This document shows, piece after piece, positions 54,814 to 62,238 of a DNA stretch of 64,000 nt (positions are counted from its first letter, which is position 1; every line of letters starts with the position of its first letter). The DNA comes from an uncultured Eubacteriales bacterium (GTDB lineage Bacteria; Bacillota; Clostridia; Peptostreptococcales; Anaerovoracaceae), in contig CADABZ010000010.1 of assembly GCA_902786355.1 (NCBI GenBank), forward strand, positions 115,907 through 179,906. Direction: 5' to 3'. The position numbers and the translations under genes are program-made. The notes beneath the pieces are model-generated. The model did not search any database. It saw nothing but the letters and a program-made list of their open reading frames with translations, and was not told the origin of the DNA.

Positions 54814-54845
54814 AAAAAAGAGAGACAGAGGAATCCCTGTCTCTC
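54814..54845 (-). terminator. Terminator after the five-gene redox/MoxR operon
   Basis: On the minus strand GAGAGACAG pairs with CTGTCTCTC around GGATTCCT and is followed by TTTTTT, about 40 bases after the reductase stop. Confidence 0.9.
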
Positions 54846-54885: not shown

Positions 54886-56094
54886 CTAATAATACTCGCC
54901 CGGAACAACGATCGTGAGGTCAGATGTCGCAAAGCTTGCGCATGGATGAATCTCGCCGCACTGCTTGTCAGCCCATCTTCTGCCGTCAGTCTCTTCAGGA
55001 ATGAACACATCGCCTGAAATGACTCTTGAACGGCACCAGCCGCATTCACCGGAGCGGCATTTTGACGGAGCCTTGATGCCTGCTCTTTCAACTGCAACGA
55101 GGATCGGCTCATTAGCTGAACAGTCACAGACTGTCTCATTCGGTCCCTGTTTAACAGTCAGCTTAAATACCTTGTCCTTAGCTGCCTGAGGATATCCCGG
55201 CTGCTCCCATACCTTTTTGGTAGCGCCGAGGAGCTCCTGGCGGACGAATTTCTTCTCAAGTCCGAGCTTGTCGACTTCCTTTGCGACGAATCTGTACATT
55301 GCCTCAGGTCCGCAGATCAGGACGCTGTATGGATCTTTGCCTGCATACTTCTTAATGAGGTCTGCAGTGATGAATCCATGCTCATATCCTTCCTTCTCCT
55401 CATCCGAGAGGACATGGACGACCCTGACCTTGTCTGTAGCAGCCATGATCTTGTCAAACTCATCCCTGAACAGGATGCTTTCTTCATTTCTGCTGCCGAA
55501 GAGGATGGTCAGATCGAAGTCCTCGATACCATCTCTTATAGCATATGCCATCGAGAGGAATGGTGTGATCCCGGAACCTCCGGCAAGAGCGACTACATGC
55601 TTAGCATCTCTGTACTGTTCATAGTAGAACGAGCCCAGCCCCTCTGATCCAATCACTTCATCTCCGACCTTGAAATTGGACAACATCCAGTCAGCAGCGA
55701 AGCCGGAAGGATTAGTCTTGACTGTAACAGCAACCTTGCCCTCGAGCGCCCACTTAGGCGATGAGGAGATAGAGTACGGACGGCTTACATAGCTGTCACC
55801 GATGTGGAGCTTGAGCGAGATATACTGACCCGCCCTGAAGAATGACGCCGGCTTGCCGTCAGCTCTCTTCAGGACAAAAGTCTTAGCTCCGGCTGCAGCG
55901 TGATCTATGATCTCATCGATCACGAATTTCTGGTAGTCAGGATGCTGAGCTTTGGCAAAATTGTTTATAGGAAAGTCGGCAGTGATCTCCTTGGCAGGAG
56001 CTGCTTCGATGACCTTTTCTCTGTCTTTCGCAAGATTAGCGAATTTGAGCATATCGAGAAGTCCGATTTTGCTTACTTTGATCTTAAGTGCCAT
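54886..56094 (-). CDS. FAD/NAD(P)-binding oxidoreductase with C-terminal 2Fe-2S domain
   Basis: A 402-residue electron-transfer reductase. Residues about 50-160 form an FAD-binding barrel (SRPYSISSSPKW). Residues about 160-300 form the NAD(P) domain (VVALAGGSGITPFLSMAYA, ILFGSRNEES). The C-terminal 90 residues are a plant-type ferredoxin with CRSGECGWC plus a later Cys in HPCASF. It would pass electrons from NAD(P)H to a partner, likely the flavoprotein encoded just upstream, since their genes overlap by one base. Confidence 0.9.
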   Translation of the reverse strand: MALKIKVSKIGLLDMLKFANLAKDREKVIEAAPAKEITADFPINNFAKAQHPDYQKFVIDEIIDHAAAGAKTFVLKRADGKPASFFRAGQYISLKLHIGDSYVSRPYSISSSPKWALEGKVAVTVKTNPSGFAADWMLSNFKVGDEVIGSEGLGSFYYEQYRDAKHVVALAGGSGITPFLSMAYAIRDGIEDFDLTILFGSRNEESILFRDEFDKIMAATDKVRVVHVLSDEEKEGYEHGFITADLIKKYAGKDPYSVLICGPEAMYRFVAKEVDKLGLEKKFVRQELLGATKKVWEQPGYPQAAKDKVFKLTVKQGPNETVCDCSANEPILVAVERAGIKAPSKCRSGECGWCRSRVISGDVFIPEETDGRRWADKQCGEIHPCASFATSDLTIVVPGEYY

Positions 56095-57632
56095 TACTTG
56101 TTACCTCCTTCCTCGAGATCCCTGCACGCTAATGCCGCGCACATATCGCCATTGAGCCATGTCGATGAGTAACCATCGCCGCGGAATGACGCTGCTCCTA
56201 TATGGCGGAGTCCTTTGATCGGGAAGTCCTTATCCATTTCCATCATTCTTGCCATCATGCCGTCCCAGTCAGACAGTTCATACCCGTAAGGGGTTCCGTC
56301 CGGGGTTCCAAGGTATCTGGCAAAAGTCATCGGTGTTGCGACCTCGACCTCTTCGATATACGGAGTGAGGTCGATACCGAGTCTCTTCTGAACATCGTCG
56401 ATGCACTTGGCGATCATCTTGTCCTTGACCTTGTAGTACTCTTCCGGAGTCAGCTTTTCCCAGTCCTGAGATTTGCTGAACAGCTTTGTAAAGCTGATGA
56501 CGCTCGTTCCTTCCGGTGAGAAGTCAGGGATCATTGTATTGTAGCTGATGAGAATGTTGTAATCATTGTCTATGCTCTTCATATTCTCATACTCTCTGCG
56601 TGAATCCGCTGAGCCCTGGAAGAATATGCAGTAATCCTTGATTCCGATCTCCTCTATCGGCTTGTTGAGTGCCATATATACGAGGCAGAACTTTGTGCTG
56701 TAGTTCTTGTTTCTGGCAGCCGAAAGCTTCTTCTCGCGCTCAGGGACAAGCTCCTTAGGCATCATCTTCGCGTAGATGATATCAGGATTGATGTTGGCCA
56801 GCACCTGCTCGCACTCAACATCTCCGAGGCTTGTTCTGACGCCGCAGATCCTGTCGCCGTCGAAAAGGAACTCCTCAGCTCTGCAGTTGAACCATGCTTC
56901 GCCGCCGAGCTCGTAGAATCTGTTCATGAAAGCCATGGATATCTCGTGTGATGTGTGATGAGGAATTACTGCCTGACGGACTACATACAGATAGATCATG
57001 ACTGCGAAGTGCAGGAAGTTGATCTGATCCAGAGGCATTCCGAGATAAGGCCAGTATACGCTCAGTATTTCGATAGCCTTGGTTGGCATCTTCATAGCCT
57101 TGAGCACCTTCAGTGCATTGTATCCGCAGGTTCTCAGAACATTAGGGAAATGCTTCTGCATATACTTGGAGTCATTAGGCGTTCCGTCCATCATATATGC
57201 CAGAGCAGCATTTATTTCATCCGTCAGTTCGAAGAACTCCTCCATAGGTTTTCTCGATCCAGGTACGTATTTCTCCATTGCATCAATGTATGCATCCTTG
57301 CCGCAAGGCATCGTTACGTCCATCGGAGTTCCGTCCGAATATGTAGCTATGCATCTGTAGCAGTCAGGGATCGTGATCCAGTCAACATTGACACCGTTTC
57401 TCTCAAGCATCTTTCTGACGCTTCCCTTGTTATCCTCCGGACCGAAATCAGCGATCTCATGCACGCTCGGATCGAATTCGAACCGGCCTCTGACAAAGCT
57501 AGACGCGCAGCCGCCCGGAAGGTTGTGCTGATCTATCAGCAGTACTTTCTTTCCTCTTACGGCGCACGATACAGCCGCGCTGATCCCGGCATTTCCGGCT
57601 CCAACAACTACGATATCGTATTTTGCTGCCAT
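56094..57632 (-). CDS. FAD-dependent oxidoreductase, phytoene desaturase/carotene isomerase-like
   Basis: A 512-residue flavoprotein. It starts with YDIVVVGAGNAGISAAVSCA and the ribose-binding LLIDQHNLPGG. The C-terminus has the flavin segment GLRHIGAASFRGDGYSSTWLNG near residue 470. It resembles carotenoid isomerase/desaturase-type enzymes, but no carotenoid genes are near, so the substrate is unknown. Its ATG follows GGAGAG and lies inside the end of the MoxR gene (25-base overlap), and its stop overlaps the reductase start, so the genes are translationally coupled. Confidence 0.87.
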   Translation of the reverse strand: MAAKYDIVVVGAGNAGISAAVSCAVRGKKVLLIDQHNLPGGCASSFVRGRFEFDPSVHEIADFGPEDNKGSVRKMLERNGVNVDWITIPDCYRCIATYSDGTPMDVTMPCGKDAYIDAMEKYVPGSRKPMEEFFELTDEINAALAYMMDGTPNDSKYMQKHFPNVLRTCGYNALKVLKAMKMPTKAIEILSVYWPYLGMPLDQINFLHFAVMIYLYVVRQAVIPHHTSHEISMAFMNRFYELGGEAWFNCRAEEFLFDGDRICGVRTSLGDVECEQVLANINPDIIYAKMMPKELVPEREKKLSAARNKNYSTKFCLVYMALNKPIEEIGIKDYCIFFQGSADSRREYENMKSIDNDYNILISYNTMIPDFSPEGTSVISFTKLFSKSQDWEKLTPEEYYKVKDKMIAKCIDDVQKRLGIDLTPYIEEVEVATPMTFARYLGTPDGTPYGYELSDWDGMMARMMEMDKDFPIKGLRHIGAASFRGDGYSSTWLNGDMCAALACRDLEEGGNK

Positions 57633-59074
57633 AATGACTCTCCTTTTCTCTTGATTTCGAGATTTCTCTCATACAGCTTTAACGTATTATTGTTTCTGTA
57701 ATATTCGTCGCATCCATATCTTGCTATGAATCTCGAGGAATAGATACCGATGGTAAGCTCGGTGACGAGTATCACCATCTCCTGTCCCGCGCCCCATACC
57801 TTTTCTGCAAAGGCAAACAGATTGTCCAGCCTGGTGCGGGCCTCTGCAGCTGATAACTTCATATCCGAAACGATCCTGTCAAAATCCCCCTTTATCGCGG
57901 CAAAATCCGTTTCTTCATGTTTTCTCAGGAATTCAAGCACTCTCTCATATTTGTTCCTTGCTTCTGCCGACAGGACGCCCATCCTGCGGAAGCGTGAGAA
58001 GACAGCCTCTTCATCAGCGATGATACTACTTATATCTTCTCCTTCTTTGACGCGTCTCAGCAGCTTTACAAGTTCAGATGCAGTATCCTCGGTCCTGATG
58101 ACTTCCGCTATGTCTGTCAGCACATTGTCCAGAAGCAGTCCGAGCAGTGAAAGCCTCTCATCGAAAGGTGCTTTCCCGGCGCGCACTTCGATTTCTTCAT
58201 CCTGGGTTCCGGCCAGTATATCCTGAAGCTTATAGTCTGAGCGGTACTTGTCGTACAGGTCATAGTATGCCGCAAAATCATCTGCGATCTCAGCATCCTG
58301 TATGTACTGTCCGACGAGCTTCCTGTCCACGGCGATTCCGAGAGTTTCGTATACTCTGATGATGCTGCTCAGATCAGTCCAGCTTCTCGGTGTCGCAAAA
58401 CGCTTGCCGTCTACAGTCGCATCGACCCTGCAGAAACTGCCTTTTCTCGCCTCGAGGTATGTCATCACACTCGCGTGGACCTCTGTGCTGTAGGCATATG
58501 CCTTCCAGGCGTCGAAGTCAGGTTCTATATCGACTCTCTTGAGTCTGTCCCATGTGACTATGTCGAATTCCCGGGCATTGCGGTTGAACTCGACAGGATT
58601 CCCTGCCGTAACGATGATCCAGCCGTCCGGCACTCTGTGTTTTCCGAAGGTCTTGAACTGCAGGAACTGAAGCATCGAAGGAGTCAGTGTCTCGGATACA
58701 CAGTTGACCTCATCGAGGAACAGGATCCCTTCCATGAGGCCTGTATCATTCATCACATCATAGACCGAAGATATGATCTCGCTCATAGTGTATTCGGACA
58801 CATCATATTCCTGATCGCCAAAAGTCTTGTGAACGATCTCCGGAAGACCGAGGGCCGATTGCCTGGTGTGATGTGTGATCGAATAGCTGACGAGACCTAT
58901 CCCCAGTTCCTCGGCTGTCTGCCTGACGATGGCTGTCTTGCCTATCCCAGGAGGGCCCATAAGGAACAGCGGTCTCTGCTCTTCCGGCGGAAGAAGATAG
59001 TTACCGTATCTGTCTCTTGCCGAATATGCTTTCACAGTATTGATAAGCTGAGTTTTGGCGTCTGCTATATTCAC
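57608..59074 (-). CDS. MoxR-type AAA+ ATPase
   Basis: A 488-residue AAA+ protein. Walker A is GPPGIGKTAIVRQ near residue 39. Walker B is ILFLDEVN near residue 117. Sensor 1 is VTAGNP near residue 156. TPRSWTDLSSII near residue 228 supplies the sensor 2 region. The long C-terminal helical domain is larger than in common MoxR proteins. With VWA proteins such ATPases form chaperones or metal-insertion machines. Its start overlaps the leucine-rich repeat gene, and its end overlaps the flavoprotein gene. Confidence 0.9.
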   Translation of the reverse strand: MNIADAKTQLINTVKAYSARDRYGNYLLPPEEQRPLFLMGPPGIGKTAIVRQTAEELGIGLVSYSITHHTRQSALGLPEIVHKTFGDQEYDVSEYTMSEIISSVYDVMNDTGLMEGILFLDEVNCVSETLTPSMLQFLQFKTFGKHRVPDGWIIVTAGNPVEFNRNAREFDIVTWDRLKRVDIEPDFDAWKAYAYSTEVHASVMTYLEARKGSFCRVDATVDGKRFATPRSWTDLSSIIRVYETLGIAVDRKLVGQYIQDAEIADDFAAYYDLYDKYRSDYKLQDILAGTQDEEIEVRAGKAPFDERLSLLGLLLDNVLTDIAEVIRTEDTASELVKLLRRVKEGEDISSIIADEEAVFSRFRRMGVLSAEARNKYERVLEFLRKHEETDFAAIKGDFDRIVSDMKLSAAEARTRLDNLFAFAEKVWGAGQEMVILVTELTIGIYSSRFIARYGCDEYYRNNNTLKLYERNLEIKRKGESLWQQNTIS

Positions 59075-59757
59075 AATTCAAACTCTCCTTCTTCAAAATG
59101 GCGCGGCGCTGACATGAGCAGTGCCATTATCTCACTTCTTCCGGCTTCGCCTGCCTGTGTTATGTACTTTCCTGTGTCTCCCCGCAGCAGGCTCAGCTTC
59201 GAGATCCCGCTCATTGCAGGGATATTGTTGTGCCTGATGATCCATTCCATAATGAGTTCTTCATTATCTCTGACGAACTCTTCTGCCAGTGCCGAGGTCT
59301 CAGATGAGTGCCTCTCAGGGCACGAGCACCACAGCAGTGTGTACTGAAGTCTCTCATGATGCCGTATATTCTCCGGATATCCGCAGGCAATGTAGCCTTC
59401 CGTCAGACTGTCGCAGCAGGCGAATGCATCACTGCCGATGACGGTATCTCTGCCGGGCACCTCGATTTTTCTCAGGCTGTCACACATGAAGAAAGCTTTT
59501 TCTTCTATGAGCTCCAGTCCCTCCGGAAGGATGACAGATTCCACTGCGCTCTCCCCGAATGCCTCTTCCCTGATGTATCTGAGTGTTGACGGGAAGCTGA
59601 CATGTCTGAGATTCGGGCAGCCGTAGAAAGAGACCTCCCCGATATCCGTCACTCCCTCAGGGATGATTATCGAGGTAAGGCTTTCGTCCTCTGCGTAAGC
59701 CCCTTCGGTAATGCGCCCGTTTATTATCCTGTCGCTGCTTATTTCCTGCATTTTCAT
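59071..59757 (-). CDS. BspA-type leucine-rich repeat protein
   Basis: A 228-residue cytoplasmic protein with no signal peptide. Residues about 27-125 contain four to five BspA-like repeats of the form LTSIIIPEGVTDIGEVSFYGC. The remaining part is helical and includes SCPERHSSETSALAEEFVRD. Most BspA proteins are surface proteins. This one is coupled to VWA and MoxR genes by four-base overlaps on each side, so an adaptor or client-recognition role is plausible. The ATG at 59757 is chosen because it overlaps the VWA stop. Confidence 0.8.
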   Translation of the reverse strand: MKMQEISSDRIINGRITEGAYAEDESLTSIIIPEGVTDIGEVSFYGCPNLRHVSFPSTLRYIREEAFGESAVESVILPEGLELIEEKAFFMCDSLRKIEVPGRDTVIGSDAFACCDSLTEGYIACGYPENIRHHERLQYTLLWCSCPERHSSETSALAEEFVRDNEELIMEWIIRHNNIPAMSGISKLSLLRGDTGKYITQAGEAGRSEIMALLMSAPRHFEEGEFEL

Positions 59758-61055
59758 AGGTTCATTATCTCCTCTGCAGGCATCTCGATCTTCATCGCCC
59801 AGTCCGGGACCCACGTATCCGTGAGGCTGTCATTGTGTATTATGAATGCTACGTCGTATTCCGGGGCCCTGGCAGGGAATCTTCCTTTGCCGTCTGTAAA
59901 ATACAGGACGCCTCTGAGGTCATGCAGCTTGCCTTCTGCGATCAGCCCGTCGACATATTCGAACACCGGTCTGAAGTCTGTCTGCCCGAGTCCGTTGATC
60001 TTCTTCTCACGGAGATATCTTTCAAAATCTTCCTGTGAGGTTATGTGCTCTGCATCCCGGACAGCATCGTCGCACTGCAGTATGTACATATTGAGATCTG
60101 AATCCAGTCTGCTCTGCCCCGCAAGCACATCGTGAGTATGCTGGATGAACTTCTGCACGACTTCTCCCTGCACGCTGCCGGATGTGTCTATCGCTATGAC
60201 AAAATCTCTTATATTCCTGTTGTCCTTATATTCCAGCGGCTCGATAAGCGGAATGTTCCCGTACAGATCGAGTCCGTATGTGTAATAATTGTTGTCGAAT
60301 TCCTCCTCGGAAAGCTTCATCGTCTCCCTGTGGATGCCGAATTTCCTGAGGAACTCCGTGTAGTTGTATCTGACGCGGTTGATCTCTCTGAGATTCTGTG
60401 TGAGCGCGCCTTCTTCCTTGCTGAAGACTTCAAGCTCGGTCTGCATCCTCCTGGAGATGTCTTTCCACAGCTCCTCCAGGTCGATATCTGCCGGGATCAG
60501 ATAGTCTGCGCCGCTGTCTCCGTACCACAGATCATGCTCATCACCGGCAAAATACTCCGCCCATTCAAGGCTGTGGATTATCGAGAAGGTATCCCGGCAG
60601 ATGAAGCTGTATATTCTCTCGGCCGTGAGGTAACCTACTTTATCCGTCAGATACTCTATAACTTCTTTCTGTTCTGCGGCTCTCCCAGCTCTGAGAAAAT
60701 CTCTGTCCAGTCCGTTTATCGCATTTTCTACTGCAATATCGCATGCCAGGTTCCATTTTGCCTTGTCAATGCCTTCGCCGACAAAACTGTGCCTGAATAC
60801 ATTGTGCAGAATGCAGTGAAGGAGATTGCGCGTGACTGCGTTCTCCTCTTCCATGTATGTCCTGATCACGGTCCACGGGCTGTACAGTATCATCGCACTG
60901 CTGCCCGCAAAACCGAAGTTCATATCCGGCATGATCCTCAGATTGCCCGCAGCCCTGTCAATAAAGCGCAGGTTAACAAGCAGTGTATTTCGCGCCAGCG
61001 TTATTATTTCCTGCGACAGTTCTTTAGCCTGCCGGTCGCGGTCTGTCAGACTCAT
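59754..61055 (-). CDS. VWA-like protein with metallopeptidase-like N-terminus (DUF2201 type)
   Basis: A 433-residue partner of MoxR ATPases. The N-terminal part has a zinc-peptidase-like pattern (LLHCILHNVFRHSF near residue 80), with a possibly inactive HxxxH. The C-terminal VWA domain contains the MIDAS motif AIDTSGSVQGE near residue 290, followed by the later metal-site threonine in GLGQTDFRPVFEY near residue 353. Metal-dependent client binding is the expected role. It is the first of five overlapping genes. Confidence 0.88.
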   Translation of the reverse strand: MSLTDRDRQAKELSQEIITLARNTLLVNLRFIDRAAGNLRIMPDMNFGFAGSSAMILYSPWTVIRTYMEEENAVTRNLLHCILHNVFRHSFVGEGIDKAKWNLACDIAVENAINGLDRDFLRAGRAAEQKEVIEYLTDKVGYLTAERIYSFICRDTFSIIHSLEWAEYFAGDEHDLWYGDSGADYLIPADIDLEELWKDISRRMQTELEVFSKEEGALTQNLREINRVRYNYTEFLRKFGIHRETMKLSEEEFDNNYYTYGLDLYGNIPLIEPLEYKDNRNIRDFVIAIDTSGSVQGEVVQKFIQHTHDVLAGQSRLDSDLNMYILQCDDAVRDAEHITSQEDFERYLREKKINGLGQTDFRPVFEYVDGLIAEGKLHDLRGVLYFTDGKGRFPARAPEYDVAFIIHNDSLTDTWVPDWAMKIEMPAEEIMNL

Positions 61056-61110: not shown

Positions 61111-62238
61111 TCAGCTTAGGGATATGATCTCCGCTATAAGCCTGCTTCCAATCTCCAGATCTCTGATCTCTATATGTTCTGTCACCGAATGCGTATCCAT
61201 CATCCCGCTTGAAAGCACTATGCCGGATATGCCATGCTCGGCAAAAACATTGTTGTCGCTTCCGCTTCTTGTGGATATAAGTTTCCCTTCCAGTCCCAGA
61301 TTCTCACAGGCCTTCAGGAAGGTCCTGCAGGTTATGTCATCTTCCGGCGTGCAGTATGCTCTGATCCTGACCTCGCTTCCGAACGTGTACTCTGCTCCCG
61401 TCCTGCTGCACACAGACTCGATGCGTTTCTCCAGCTCTCCGAGGACTCTGACAGCCTCTTCATGATCACTGCCTCTGACCTCACCTGTGCATCTGCAGCT
61501 GTCGGATACTATATTCGATGCTTTTCCGCCTTCGATCGTTCCTATATTAAGAGTAAGTCCTGTCCCGATGAGCCCCTGCTCAGTCTGAGATATTATCTCA
61601 GCGGCTGCGGCGATAGCATTTATCCCTGCGCCCGGATCAAAACCTGCGTGCGCCGGTTTCCCGTGTATCGTGAACTCGAAGGATATTATAGAAGGGGCAG
61701 ACACCGCAGCATTACCGACACTGCCGCTCATATCCGCTATATATGCAGTCTTCGATCTGACTCTGCTGAAATCGAATTTCACAGCGCCCTTGCAGTACGA
61801 CTCTTCGGCAACCGTGAACAATATCTCAATATCTCCATATCCGGCAGGATCTGCTTTTGCGAGCCGGATACCTTCGAGGATCTCTGCGACCCCGGACAGA
61901 TCATCCGCTCCGAGCACCGTGTCTCCTGCGGAAGTGATCATACCTCTGCTCCGGTCCACGATGGCTTTTTTGCCAAGTCCGGGCTCTACAGTATCCATAT
62001 GCGCCGAAAGCAGGACCGGCTCTCTGCCGGGATCGGTTCCTTTCAGAAGGCCATACAGATTGCCTGTATCCGATCCGTAGTATGCGCCCGCATCATCCTC
62101 AGTTACTTCAAATCCCAGACTTTCAAGCTCCGCCTTAAGTATGTCTGCCATCCGCCTCTCTCCAAGGCTGACAGAGTCTACTGATACAAGCTCTGTGAAC
62201 TGGTCAAGGACTCTTTCAAGATCCACTTTGCGATCCAT
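61111..62238 (-). CDS. M20/PepT-like metallopeptidase
   Basis: A 375-residue peptidase of the M20 family (PepT-like or related). Metal ligands are LLSAHMDTVEPG near residue 76, GADDLSGVAEIL near residue 111, the catalytic glutamates in TVAEESYCKGA near residue 143 and a C-terminal histidine in MMDTHSVTEHIEI near residue 350. The dimerisation lid is between. It is probably a cytoplasmic tripeptidase or carboxypeptidase. It lies between the pyruvate kinase gene and the VWA operon, all on one strand. Confidence 0.9.
   Translation of the reverse strand: MDRKVDLERVLDQFTELVSVDSVSLGERRMADILKAELESLGFEVTEDDAGAYYGSDTGNLYGLLKGTDPGREPVLLSAHMDTVEPGLGKKAIVDRSRGMITSAGDTVLGADDLSGVAEILEGIRLAKADPAGYGDIEILFTVAEESYCKGAVKFDFSRVRSKTAYIADMSGSVGNAAVSAPSIISFEFTIHGKPAHAGFDPGAGINAIAAAAEIISQTEQGLIGTGLTLNIGTIEGGKASNIVSDSCRCTGEVRGSDHEEAVRVLGELEKRIESVCSRTGAEYTFGSEVRIRAYCTPEDDITCRTFLKACENLGLEGKLISTRSGSDNNVFAEHGISGIVLSSGMMDTHSVTEHIEIRDLEIGSRLIAEIISLS

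What the first reader, a model, noticed from the sequence alone, without database searches (positions are those of the whole stretch)
54886..61055. Five overlapping genes: VWA, LRR, MoxR ATPase, flavoprotein and 2Fe-2S reductase
Every junction is an overlap: VWA/LRR 4 bases, LRR/MoxR 4 bases, MoxR/flavoprotein 25 bases, flavoprotein/reductase 1 base. The only terminator found is after the last gene. MoxR-VWA pairs are known chaperone or metallo-insertion machines, for example with CO dehydrogenase or methanol dehydrogenase. A cytoplasmic BspA-type leucine-rich repeat protein between the two, and a redox pair translated from the same message, are not part of any arrangement I know. It may be a dedicated maturation machine for this redox pair, with the repeat protein recognising the client.
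Basis: partly seen in the sequence, partly recalled or inferred. Interest (0 to 1): 0.82.

Follow-up and report, generated by a model that had tools for sequence, protein, structure and literature searches.

The report
AAA+ chaperone trio with LRR adaptor
Gut-type Clostridia carry a three-part protein-remodelling machine (an ATPase, a metal-site VWA partner and a tailed leucine-rich-repeat adaptor) that here is wired in one operon to a flavin and iron-sulphur redox pair, its likely client.

Summary
The five overlapping genes are real and as described. Relatives show that the unit is a conserved machine. In this genus and one MAG labelled Solobacterium, all 13 fetched full loci of this MoxR clade keep LRR-MoxR-flavoprotein-2Fe-2S reductase in order; 11 also keep VWA in front, in 2 VWA is divergent. 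The LRR protein is an obligate partner: its C-terminal helical domain occurs in exactly the 23 of 60 relatives that carry this MoxR. Of 42 Clostridia loci picked by MoxR alone, 36 have an LRR- or adaptor-like neighbour. The domain ends in a disordered tail that is subtype specific: EF(E/D)L here, DPFx in a second paralogue, (D/E)(D/E)L in a third. The second paralogue, in the same genome, sits in a corrinoid-methyltransferase and tetrapyrrole operon. I read this as a MoxR-like/VWA remodelling motor with an exchangeable LRR adaptor; here the client is most likely the co-transcribed redox pair. Complex formation, client and chemistry are inferred. Against a strict requirement, four genomes carry a related redox pair without this subtype. 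It resembles RavA-ViaA/fumarate reductase and MoxR-vWA ternary systems, but fails the tested defining features of the latter. New variant of a known kind.

The parts
59754..61055 (-). VWA protein (433 aa): DUF2201_N pseudo-metallopeptidase domain plus DUF2201 VWA domain
   Evidence: Pfam DUF2201 4.6e-12, DUF2201_N 4.6e-5; 29 of 29 aligned relatives match DUF2201, 26 of 29 DUF2201_N; model pLDDT 81.8
60174..60188 (-). MIDAS motif D290-T-S-G-S294 (with T359 at 59981-59979 and D388 at 59894-59892)
   Evidence: D290, S292, S294, T359 and D388 100% in the 59-row alignment; invariant in alignment A3, 29 rows
60789..60818 (-). His triad H80-x3-H84-x4-H89; the Glu of HExxH is absent
   Evidence: H80, H84, H89 94-96% conserved in 59 rows; no row that shows the motif has E after the first H; invariant in A3
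59071..59757 (-). LRR adaptor (228 aa)
   Evidence: LRR_5 5.4e-25; AlphaFold model pLDDT 92.8
59110..59361 (-). C-terminal helical (ankyrin-like) domain of the adaptor, residues 133-216
   Evidence: six helices in the model; profile A1 of the C-terminal 80 residues found in exactly the 23 of 60 relatives with this ATPase
59074..59085 (-). C-terminal tail E-F-E-L-COOH of the adaptor
   Evidence: EF(E/D)L in 12 of 13 type-1 adaptors; residues 221-228 pLDDT below 50
57608..59074 (-). MoxR-like AAA+ ATPase (488 aa)
   Evidence: AAA 1.8e-7, AAA_5 8.9e-6; 28 of 28 aligned relatives match both at E 1e-3
58934..58957 (-). Walker A GPPGIGKT (residues 40-47); Walker B D121-E122 at 58714-58709
   Evidence: G40, P42, G43, G45, K46, T47, D121, E122 invariant in 28 rows
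56094..57632 (-). FAD flavoprotein (512 aa), CrtISO/CrtI-like, GAGNAG at residues 11-16
   Evidence: TIGR02730 2.2e-28, far below its cutoff; NAD_binding_8 1.2e-10; motif
54886..56094 (-). FAD/NAD reductase with C-terminal plant-type 2Fe-2S domain (402 aa)
   Evidence: NAD_binding_1 4.9e-20, Fer2 1.7e-8, FAD_binding_6 1.1e-6; CX4CX2CXnC from residue 346, present in 29 of 29 homologues checked
54820..54845 (-). terminator-like hairpin with T-run after the last gene
   Evidence: 11-pair stem; chance not excluded

Best explanation
The operon encodes an ATP-driven protein-remodelling machine and its most likely client. The MoxR-like ATPase is the motor. The VWA protein is its co-chaperone, with an intact MIDAS metal site. 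The LRR protein is the exchangeable client adaptor: the LRR face would hold the client, and the helical domain with its free C-terminal tail would plug the adaptor into the VWA-ATPase assembly. In this subtype the client is the co-translated flavoprotein and 2Fe-2S reductase, which the machine would mature, re-activate or keep in a reducible state. Shown: operon structure, intact motifs, co-occurrence of adaptor and motor, subtype-specific tails, and long-lasting linkage of this subtype to the redox pair. Inferred: physical complex, tail docking, client identity, and the nature of the remodelling.
For: Adaptor domain in 23 of 23 ATPase-positive and 0 of 37 ATPase-negative relatives (12 of the 23 genomes gave no sequence to the search profile); copy numbers equal in 20 of 23 genomes. 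In 42 loci chosen by ATPase similarity alone, 36 have an LRR, adaptor-domain or homologous (cluster c24) neighbour within 1.5 kb; density within 1.5 kb is 38-fold (adaptor domain) and 19-fold (LRR) that further away. Tails differ by subtype: 12/13 EF(E/D)L, 11/11 DPFx, 9/10 (D/E)(D/E)L. Type-1 ATPases form one clade (100/98), and 13 of 13 loci carry the redox pair directly downstream, although ATPase-adjacent flavoproteins are not one clade (3 changes forced) and VWA is inverted in two. In 4 genomes a second complete flavoprotein-reductase pair lies divergently beside VWA, in a fifth (G010) it is cut by the contig end. ATPase and MIDAS residues invariant. Precedent: ViaA binds the flavoprotein FrdA through its VWA domain (PMC10585395, passages); NorD needs its MIDAS for active client (PMC9976466, passages).
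Against: FlavP2 pairs occur without a type-1 machine in G018, G024, G027 and G037 (genomes 82-97% complete), and FlavP1 pairs sit away from the machine in G011 and G046. No interaction was tested; complexes could not be modelled. In 6 of 42 loci no adaptor was found (5 at contig ends, L057 truly lacking), and in the class sample L116 and L120 also show none. Of the 36, L045 and L047 are doubtful (domain hit, no LRR, no such tail), and L036, L042, L048, L055, L058 have LRR neighbours without the tail. In type 2 the adaptor gene is about 5 kb from the ATPase gene. The MoxR name is weak: a profile of 28 relatives finds in the PDB only P-loop matches to VCP-type ATPases and RuvB among the 60 shown, not RavA or NorQ. 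Co-transcription alone does not prove a client.
Confidence: 0.6

Rival explanations
1. The machine does not mature the redox pair but regulates it: it binds the finished enzyme and lowers or switches its electron flow, as proposed for RavA-ViaA on fumarate reductase.
For: Same linkage evidence. RavA-ViaA is reported to reduce Frd activity by ViaA binding FrdA (PMC10585395, passages). FlavP2 pairs exist without the machine, which fits modulation better than strict maturation.
Against: Co-translation in fixed order with overlapping genes fits assembly at least as well; NorQD is needed for active enzyme (PMC9976466, passages). The RavA-ViaA effect on Frd is itself disputed (passage).
Confidence: 0.27
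2. The machine and the redox pair are only operon neighbours that share expression; the machine's client is another protein.
For: The trio occurs in most other lineages without this pair: 76 of 89 loci with MoxR or VWA have no pair in the fetched stretch, and the scanned neighbours of type 3 look unrelated.
Against: 13 of 13 type-1 loci keep the pair, through VWA inversion and across two flavoprotein lineages, and in several different flanking contexts.
Confidence: 0.2
3. It is a conflict (anti-phage) ternary system of the MoxR-vWA type in which the LRR senses invaders and the redox pair is the effector.
For: Third components and repeats around a MoxR-vWA core are described in such systems (PMC7159879 and PMC8195603, passages); the trio is patchy within the genus.
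Against: VWA has no C-terminal effector (VWA match ends at residue 424 of 433); no VMAP, iSTAND or propeller domain was reported for the third protein; PADLOC gave only IetA and PD-T7-1 (ATPase) and a desaturase model on the Rossmann part of the flavoprotein; type 2 lies in a biosynthetic operon.
Confidence: 0.06
4. The ATPase-VWA pair is a metal chelatase of the CobST/ChlID kind acting in tetrapyrrole chemistry; type 1 is a derived version.
For: Type 2 sits beside precorrin-2 dehydrogenase-like, CobI, CobA/HemD and HemC genes and corrinoid methyltransferases.
Against: No large CobN/ChlH-like subunit among the type-2 genes scanned; no tetrapyrrole gene among the scanned genes of types 1 and 3.
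Confidence: 0.07

Closest known systems
RavA-ViaA with fumarate reductase (E. coli)
   Same: MoxR-type ATPase plus VWA partner tied to a flavoprotein and an iron-sulphur partner; ViaA VWA binds FrdA (PMC10585395, passages)
   Different: No LRR adaptor and, to my recollection, no shared operon with frd; here the flavoprotein is CrtISO-like with an NAD/FAD/2Fe-2S reductase, and the VWA protein is of the DUF2201 family
NorQ-NorD and CbbQ-CbbO
   Same: MoxR ATPase and VWA protein that serve an enzyme; the NorD MIDAS is needed for active client (PMC9976466, passages)
   Different: Two components (third component not mentioned in the passages seen); client contact is proposed for the VWA protein itself; no separate repeat adaptor with a C-terminal tail
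MoxR-vWA ternary systems (VMAP, iSTAND, FtsH, beta-propeller, TERNS3)
   Same: MoxR + vWA core with a defining third protein (PMC7159879, PMC8195603, passages); bpMoxR is the nearest MoxR-named Pfam model, below its cutoff for the window protein
   Different: Third component is an LRR/ankyrin-like adaptor; no effector fused to vWA; found in Clostridia next to metabolic genes
CoxD/CoxE and MoxR of CO and methanol dehydrogenase
   Same: MoxR-VWA genes in a redox enzyme operon (recalled)
   Different: No molybdenum or PQQ enzyme domain among the five proteins; extra LRR gene
BspA-type LRR_5 surface proteins
   Same: LRR_5 fold; nearest solved structure TpLRR 6mlx, TM about 0.46
   Different: Small, no signal peptide seen by eye, helical C-terminal domain with a conserved free tail, tied to the ATPase

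Membership tests
MoxR-type AAA+ ATPases | AAA+ core with Walker A, Walker B, sensor residues | tested here: met
   AAA and AAA_5 above cutoffs for the window protein; Walker A, D121/E122, N159 invariant in 28 rows
MoxR-type AAA+ ATPases | match to a Pfam MoxR-named model (AAA_3, bpMoxR) above cutoff, or to a solved MoxR structure | tested here: not met
   AAA_3 14.2 bits against 27, bpMoxR 23.4 against 27; bpMoxR matches 26 of 28 relatives at E 1e-3, cutoffs not shown there; PDB matches of P0003 and of profile A4 are P-loop stretches of midasin, VCP-like and RuvB proteins, none named MoxR, RavA or NorQ among those shown. I therefore write MoxR-like.
MoxR-type AAA+ ATPases | helix-2 insert and MoxR clade structure | not tested
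   no model of the ATPase was made
MoxR-VWA pairs | adjacent VWA protein with intact MIDAS DxSxS...T...D | tested here: met
   VWA fold hits in PDB
RavA-ViaA | ViaA-type N-terminal domain and RavA LARA domain | not tested
   no ViaA or RavA model appeared among the Pfam/NCBIfam matches shown, but their sequences were not compared directly
RavA-ViaA | physical contact of VWA with a flavoprotein | not testable with these tools
   genetic linkage only
MoxR-vWA ternary conflict systems | third component VMAP, iSTAND, FtsH, beta-propeller or TERNS3 | tested here: not met
   only LRR_5 found by Pfam in the third protein; I did not check which of the named domains have models in the library
MoxR-vWA ternary conflict systems | variable effector domains on the vWA protein or a linked gene | tested here: not met
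   VWA protein ends 9 residues after the domain match; the 29 members of A3 match only DUF2201, DUF2201_N and VWA_2
Known anti-phage defence systems | match to defence models over most of the protein | tested here: not met
   PADLOC: IetA 6e-4 and PD-T7-1 9e-3 on the ATPase, C3a186 (desaturase) 8e-7 on residues 7-51 of the flavoprotein, nothing for VWA, LRR or reductase
Cobalt/magnesium chelatase (CobNST, ChlHID) | large CobN/ChlH subunit nearby | tested here: not met
   none in the window operon or among the type-2 genes scanned
BspA-type LRR proteins | LRR_5 repeats | tested here: met
   5.4e-25
BspA-type LRR proteins | secreted or surface location | tested here: inconclusive
   no signal peptide seen by eye in the translation; no predictor was available

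The most novel reading that the evidence does not exclude
Clostridia use a general plug-in chaperone platform: one MoxR-like/VWA motor type that docks exchangeable LRR adaptors through a short hydrophobic C-terminal tail. Co-resident copies (G023 and G030 carry types 1, 2 and 3) stay insulated because each subtype has its own tail code (EFEL, DPFx, EEL), and each serves a different low-potential enzyme system, such as a flavin/2Fe-2S reductase or a corrinoid methyltransferase with its RACo activator.
Probability: 0.38. Interest if true: 0.85.

Novelty: new variant of a known kind. Interest (0 to 1): 0.72.

Why it matters
How MoxR-VWA machines choose clients is largely open (my judgement), and the effect of RavA-ViaA on its flavoprotein client is disputed. 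Here nature supplies paralogous machines in one cell, each with its own adaptor, its own tail sequence and, for two of three, its own linked enzyme system. That makes adaptor logic, tail docking and client choice testable by swapping four residues or one repeat protein. The type-2 copy would also name a missing helper for corrinoid methyltransferase systems in gut anaerobes.

Tried and rejected
Defence system: considered because MoxR-vWA trios are known in conflict systems; rejected as leading idea on PADLOC, absence of effectors and the metabolic setting of type 2. Chelatase: considered because of type 2; no large subunit among the genes scanned. Active metalloprotease: DUF2201_N keeps the His triad but the HExxH glutamate is missing in every row that shows the motif. 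Proteome-wide tail tag: the EF(E/D)L-stop DNA pattern in 60 genomes gives 110 sites against 201 for the reversed control (my sum of the table); the window genome has two matches, one the LRR gene, the other ending in TGG, which is no stop. So the tail is not a general tag. Tail as by-product of the 4-base overlap: rejected, since ATGA/GTGA fixes only the third base of the last codon, and adaptors without an overlap (L084-L086) keep EFEL.

Substrate of the flavoprotein: scanned neighbours of FlavP copies include transporters, esterase-like and alpha/beta hydrolases, a GDPD, a homocysteine methyltransferase, an acyltransferase and a LysR regulator; no substrate can be named. A literature query on CrtISO/RetSat-like reductases gave nothing useful. 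Solved-structure searches with P0001 (E 0.01) and profile A3 (E 0.1) found no relative; P0004 found carotenoid desaturases at best 1e-8.

Weak points of my own tests: the tail pattern was defined after seeing the tails. The adaptor profile A1 was trained on partners, so its hits in 11 of the 23 positive genomes are not independent; the other 12 are. In one search the partner list includes near-copies (46 of 62 end in Leu against 78 of 855 background genes; 30 of 62 against 10 of 855 for the F-x-L pattern), 46 of 73 against 76 of 827 for hydrophobic-x-hydrophobic ends and 59 of 73 against 91 of 827 for a last Leu. The 36 of 42 are 33 by profile and 3 (L064, L070, L072) by sequence cluster c24. 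In one search all hits were labelled VWA because one file held all five proteins; one search replaces it. In one search L122 and L123 were put in the corrinoid group by gene position alone; one search shows no such genes there, and they lie apart from the other nine rows. G010 contig C67 (L010), cut at a contig end, holds another copy of the VWA gene with a FlavP2 pair and was dropped from the locus counts. In one search I entered the VWA fragment G012:C80 by hand among the ATPase places.

Full report
What is there. The VWA protein carries an N-terminal DUF2201_N domain and a DUF2201 VWA domain; the LRR protein is LRR_5; the ATPase matches AAA and AAA_5; the flavoprotein is nearest to carotenoid isomerase/CrtI models, far below their cutoffs; the last gene has FAD, NAD and 2Fe-2S domains. 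Motifs look functional: Walker A and B invariant in 28 ATPases; MIDAS invariant in VWA relatives; the four-cysteine 2Fe-2S motif in 29 of 29 reductases. The DUF2201_N domain keeps three histidines but lacks the catalytic glutamate of HExxH, so it is probably a structural or metal site and not a protease. The name MoxR is only approximate: no MoxR-named Pfam model reaches its cutoff, and sequence searches of solved structures find only P-loop stretches of other AAA+ proteins. I use MoxR below as shorthand.

Conservation of the five-gene order. In 99 genomes (G000 included), nine hold a VWA at 65% identity or more (G000, G004, G009, G010, G012, G022, G030, G040, G042), and all nine have the five genes in this order. 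A public contig labelled Solobacterium has them too (L034). Three more loci of the same MoxR clade, G023, G011 and G046, keep LRR-MoxR-flavoprotein-reductase; VWA is in front in G023 and divergent in the other two. So 13 of 13 loci keep the four-gene run, and 11 of 13 the five. Junctions are tight in the ten loci of the main branch. Flanks are shared by G004, G012 and G042, where the block lies beside a second flavoprotein-reductase pair; I saw no shared immediate neighbour among the other six genus loci. These 13 ATPases form one clade with 100/98 support. The flavoproteins next to them do not: one group is FlavP1, the other is sister to FlavP2, with three changes forced by well-supported branches. 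Either the whole operon was duplicated and co-diverged, or the machine re-associated with a paralogue. Both favour a functional tie.

Counter-evidence on the pair. FlavP1 pairs lie away from the machine in G011 and G046. FlavP2 pairs stand alone in several genomes, and G018, G024, G027 and G037 have no type-1 machine among their hits, only another subtype. None of the other 76 of the 89 loci with MoxR or VWA has the pair in the fetched stretch at phmmer E 1e-40; some of these stretches are short. The pair is thus the partner of one subtype, not of the machine in general.

The LRR protein is the constant third part. Its C-terminal 80 residues are a helical, ankyrin-like domain followed by a short free tail. 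A profile of that region (A1) was searched in 60 relatives: 23 genomes match, exactly the 23 with the ATPase (Fisher 4e-17; species are related, so the p-value overstates). Twelve of these gave no sequence to the profile. Of 41 hits, 34 are on a contig with MoxR or VWA, at most 9.2 kb start to start; the other 7 are on other contigs. Three of those 7 places were fetched (L131-L133) and are the right half of the type-2 operon; four were not looked at. In a class-wide sample of 291 genomes, 16 have the ATPase, 11 the domain, 10 both; the eleventh, G319, shows a run of adaptor-profile hits in successive ORFs and no ATPase, which I read as a false positive on ankyrin-like repeats. Of the six ATPase genomes without a profile hit in that search, L117, L118 and L119 show an LRR or domain neighbour on inspection; L116, L120 and L121 do not, L121 being near a contig end. 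In 42 loci chosen by ATPase similarity alone, 36 have an LRR, adaptor-domain or c24-cluster neighbour within 1.5 kb, two of them doubtful (L045, L047); of the other six, five are at contig ends and L057 truly lacks one. Density is 38-fold (domain) and 19-fold (LRR) above the rest of the same loci. Some adaptors keep the domain and tail but have no recognisable LRR (L037, L046), which points to exchangeable front ends.

The tail. The model of the window LRR protein is confident (pLDDT 92.8), but residues 221-228 are disordered. Tails are subtype specific: EF(E/D)L in 12 of 13 type-1 adaptors (GIEL in L034), DPFx in 11 of 11 type-2, (D/E)(D/E)L in 9 of 10 type-3. G023 and G030 hold all three types. 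A short, free, conserved C-terminus on a variable linker is what a docking peptide would look like. VWA MIDAS sites bind acidic ligands (PMC9976466, passages), and a C-terminal carboxylate docking in a MIDAS is known for C3b and factor B (recalled), so the VWA MIDAS is my first guess for the receptor; a pocket of the ATPase ring is the second.

Other members of the machine. The window genome has a second copy (G000 contig 1; L096). The type-2 operon, read from L096 with its left end from L098 and L100 (HemC lies beyond the L096 stretch), holds HemC, a CobA-HemD fusion, a CobI-type methylase, an ABC transporter, a protein of unknown family, a CysG-like dehydrogenase, then VWA and MoxR, a MtaA/CmuA-like protein, a corrinoid protein, a RACo-type activator with a 2Fe-2S domain, a second MtaA-like protein, the LRR adaptor, a third URO-D-family protein and DUF1638. 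The arrangement recurs in L097-L102, and parts of it in L061 and L131-L134. A third subtype (LRR-VWA-MoxR) has neighbours of other kinds where scanned (L106, L109). In type 2 the adaptor gene lies among the enzyme genes and not beside the motor, which fits a client-side role.

How it most likely works (inference). ATPase hexamers, with the VWA protein as coupling factor, act on a client brought by the LRR adaptor, which docks through its tail. In type 1 the client is the flavoprotein-reductase pair, where NAD(P)H would reduce FAD, then 2Fe-2S, then the flavoprotein. The remodelling could load or re-activate a cofactor, or adjust activity. I put maturation or re-activation ahead of regulation, but not by much, because related pairs live without the machine.

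Known or new. A MoxR-VWA pair serving an enzyme is known (NorQD; RavA-ViaA with Frd; passages). MoxR-vWA systems with a third protein are known as conflict systems (passages), but the defining features that I could test are not met here. Searches for MoxR with vWA and leucine-rich repeat, with VMAP/ternary system, with leucine rich repeat/AAA ATPase/operon, with corrinoid and with BspA, and for DUF2201, returned no paper describing this trio among the titles, abstract openings and passages that I saw; the library lacks most subscription journals. I class it as a new variant of a known kind.

Noticed in passing
L096 (G000 contig 1, 136001-156000): A second MoxR-VWA-LRR set of the same genome lies in a tetrapyrrole and corrinoid-methyltransferase operon with a RACo-type activator; conserved in L097-L102, parts in L061 and L131-L134.
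   Followed up: partly
L103-L107, L109, L110, L113: A third subtype with gene order LRR-VWA-MoxR; in L106, L107 and L109 a DNA_alkylation protein and a YjbR/DNA-methyltransferase fusion follow, elsewhere other genes; no shared client is obvious.
   Followed up: partly
L080, L082, L079 beside the type-1 block: A second flavoprotein-reductase pair lies divergently next to VWA; in G018 and G027 (L091, L092) the same flanking genes hold that pair without the block, so the five-gene block looks inserted.
   Followed up: partly
H1-H5 (MT835935.1 and others): Six records of the phage collection cover at least 80% of the ATPase; the five listed, named Bacteriophage sp. from human faeces, are 41-47% identical. 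They may be bacterial contigs or phage-borne copies.
   Followed up: no
L122, L123 (G123, G273): A MoxR-VWA-LRR variant with a 1110-aa DUF5107-TPR protein and a lipase-like (Mbeg1-like) protein (scanned in L122) between VWA and the adaptor.
   Followed up: partly
L105, L111, L049, L060: Two adaptor-like genes per machine, each with its own tail, including a 978-aa LRR protein in L105.
   Followed up: no
G019 contig 55, 9722-10846: A FlavP1-like gene matched in two pieces (73% and 77% identity) with no matching reductase, ATPase or VWA hit in that genome at the cutoffs used.
   Followed up: no
window 61111-62238 (-): An ORF that looks like an M20-type peptidase (by eye) ends 55 bp upstream of the VWA gene on the same strand with no promoter-like site between; the transcript may include it.
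   Followed up: no
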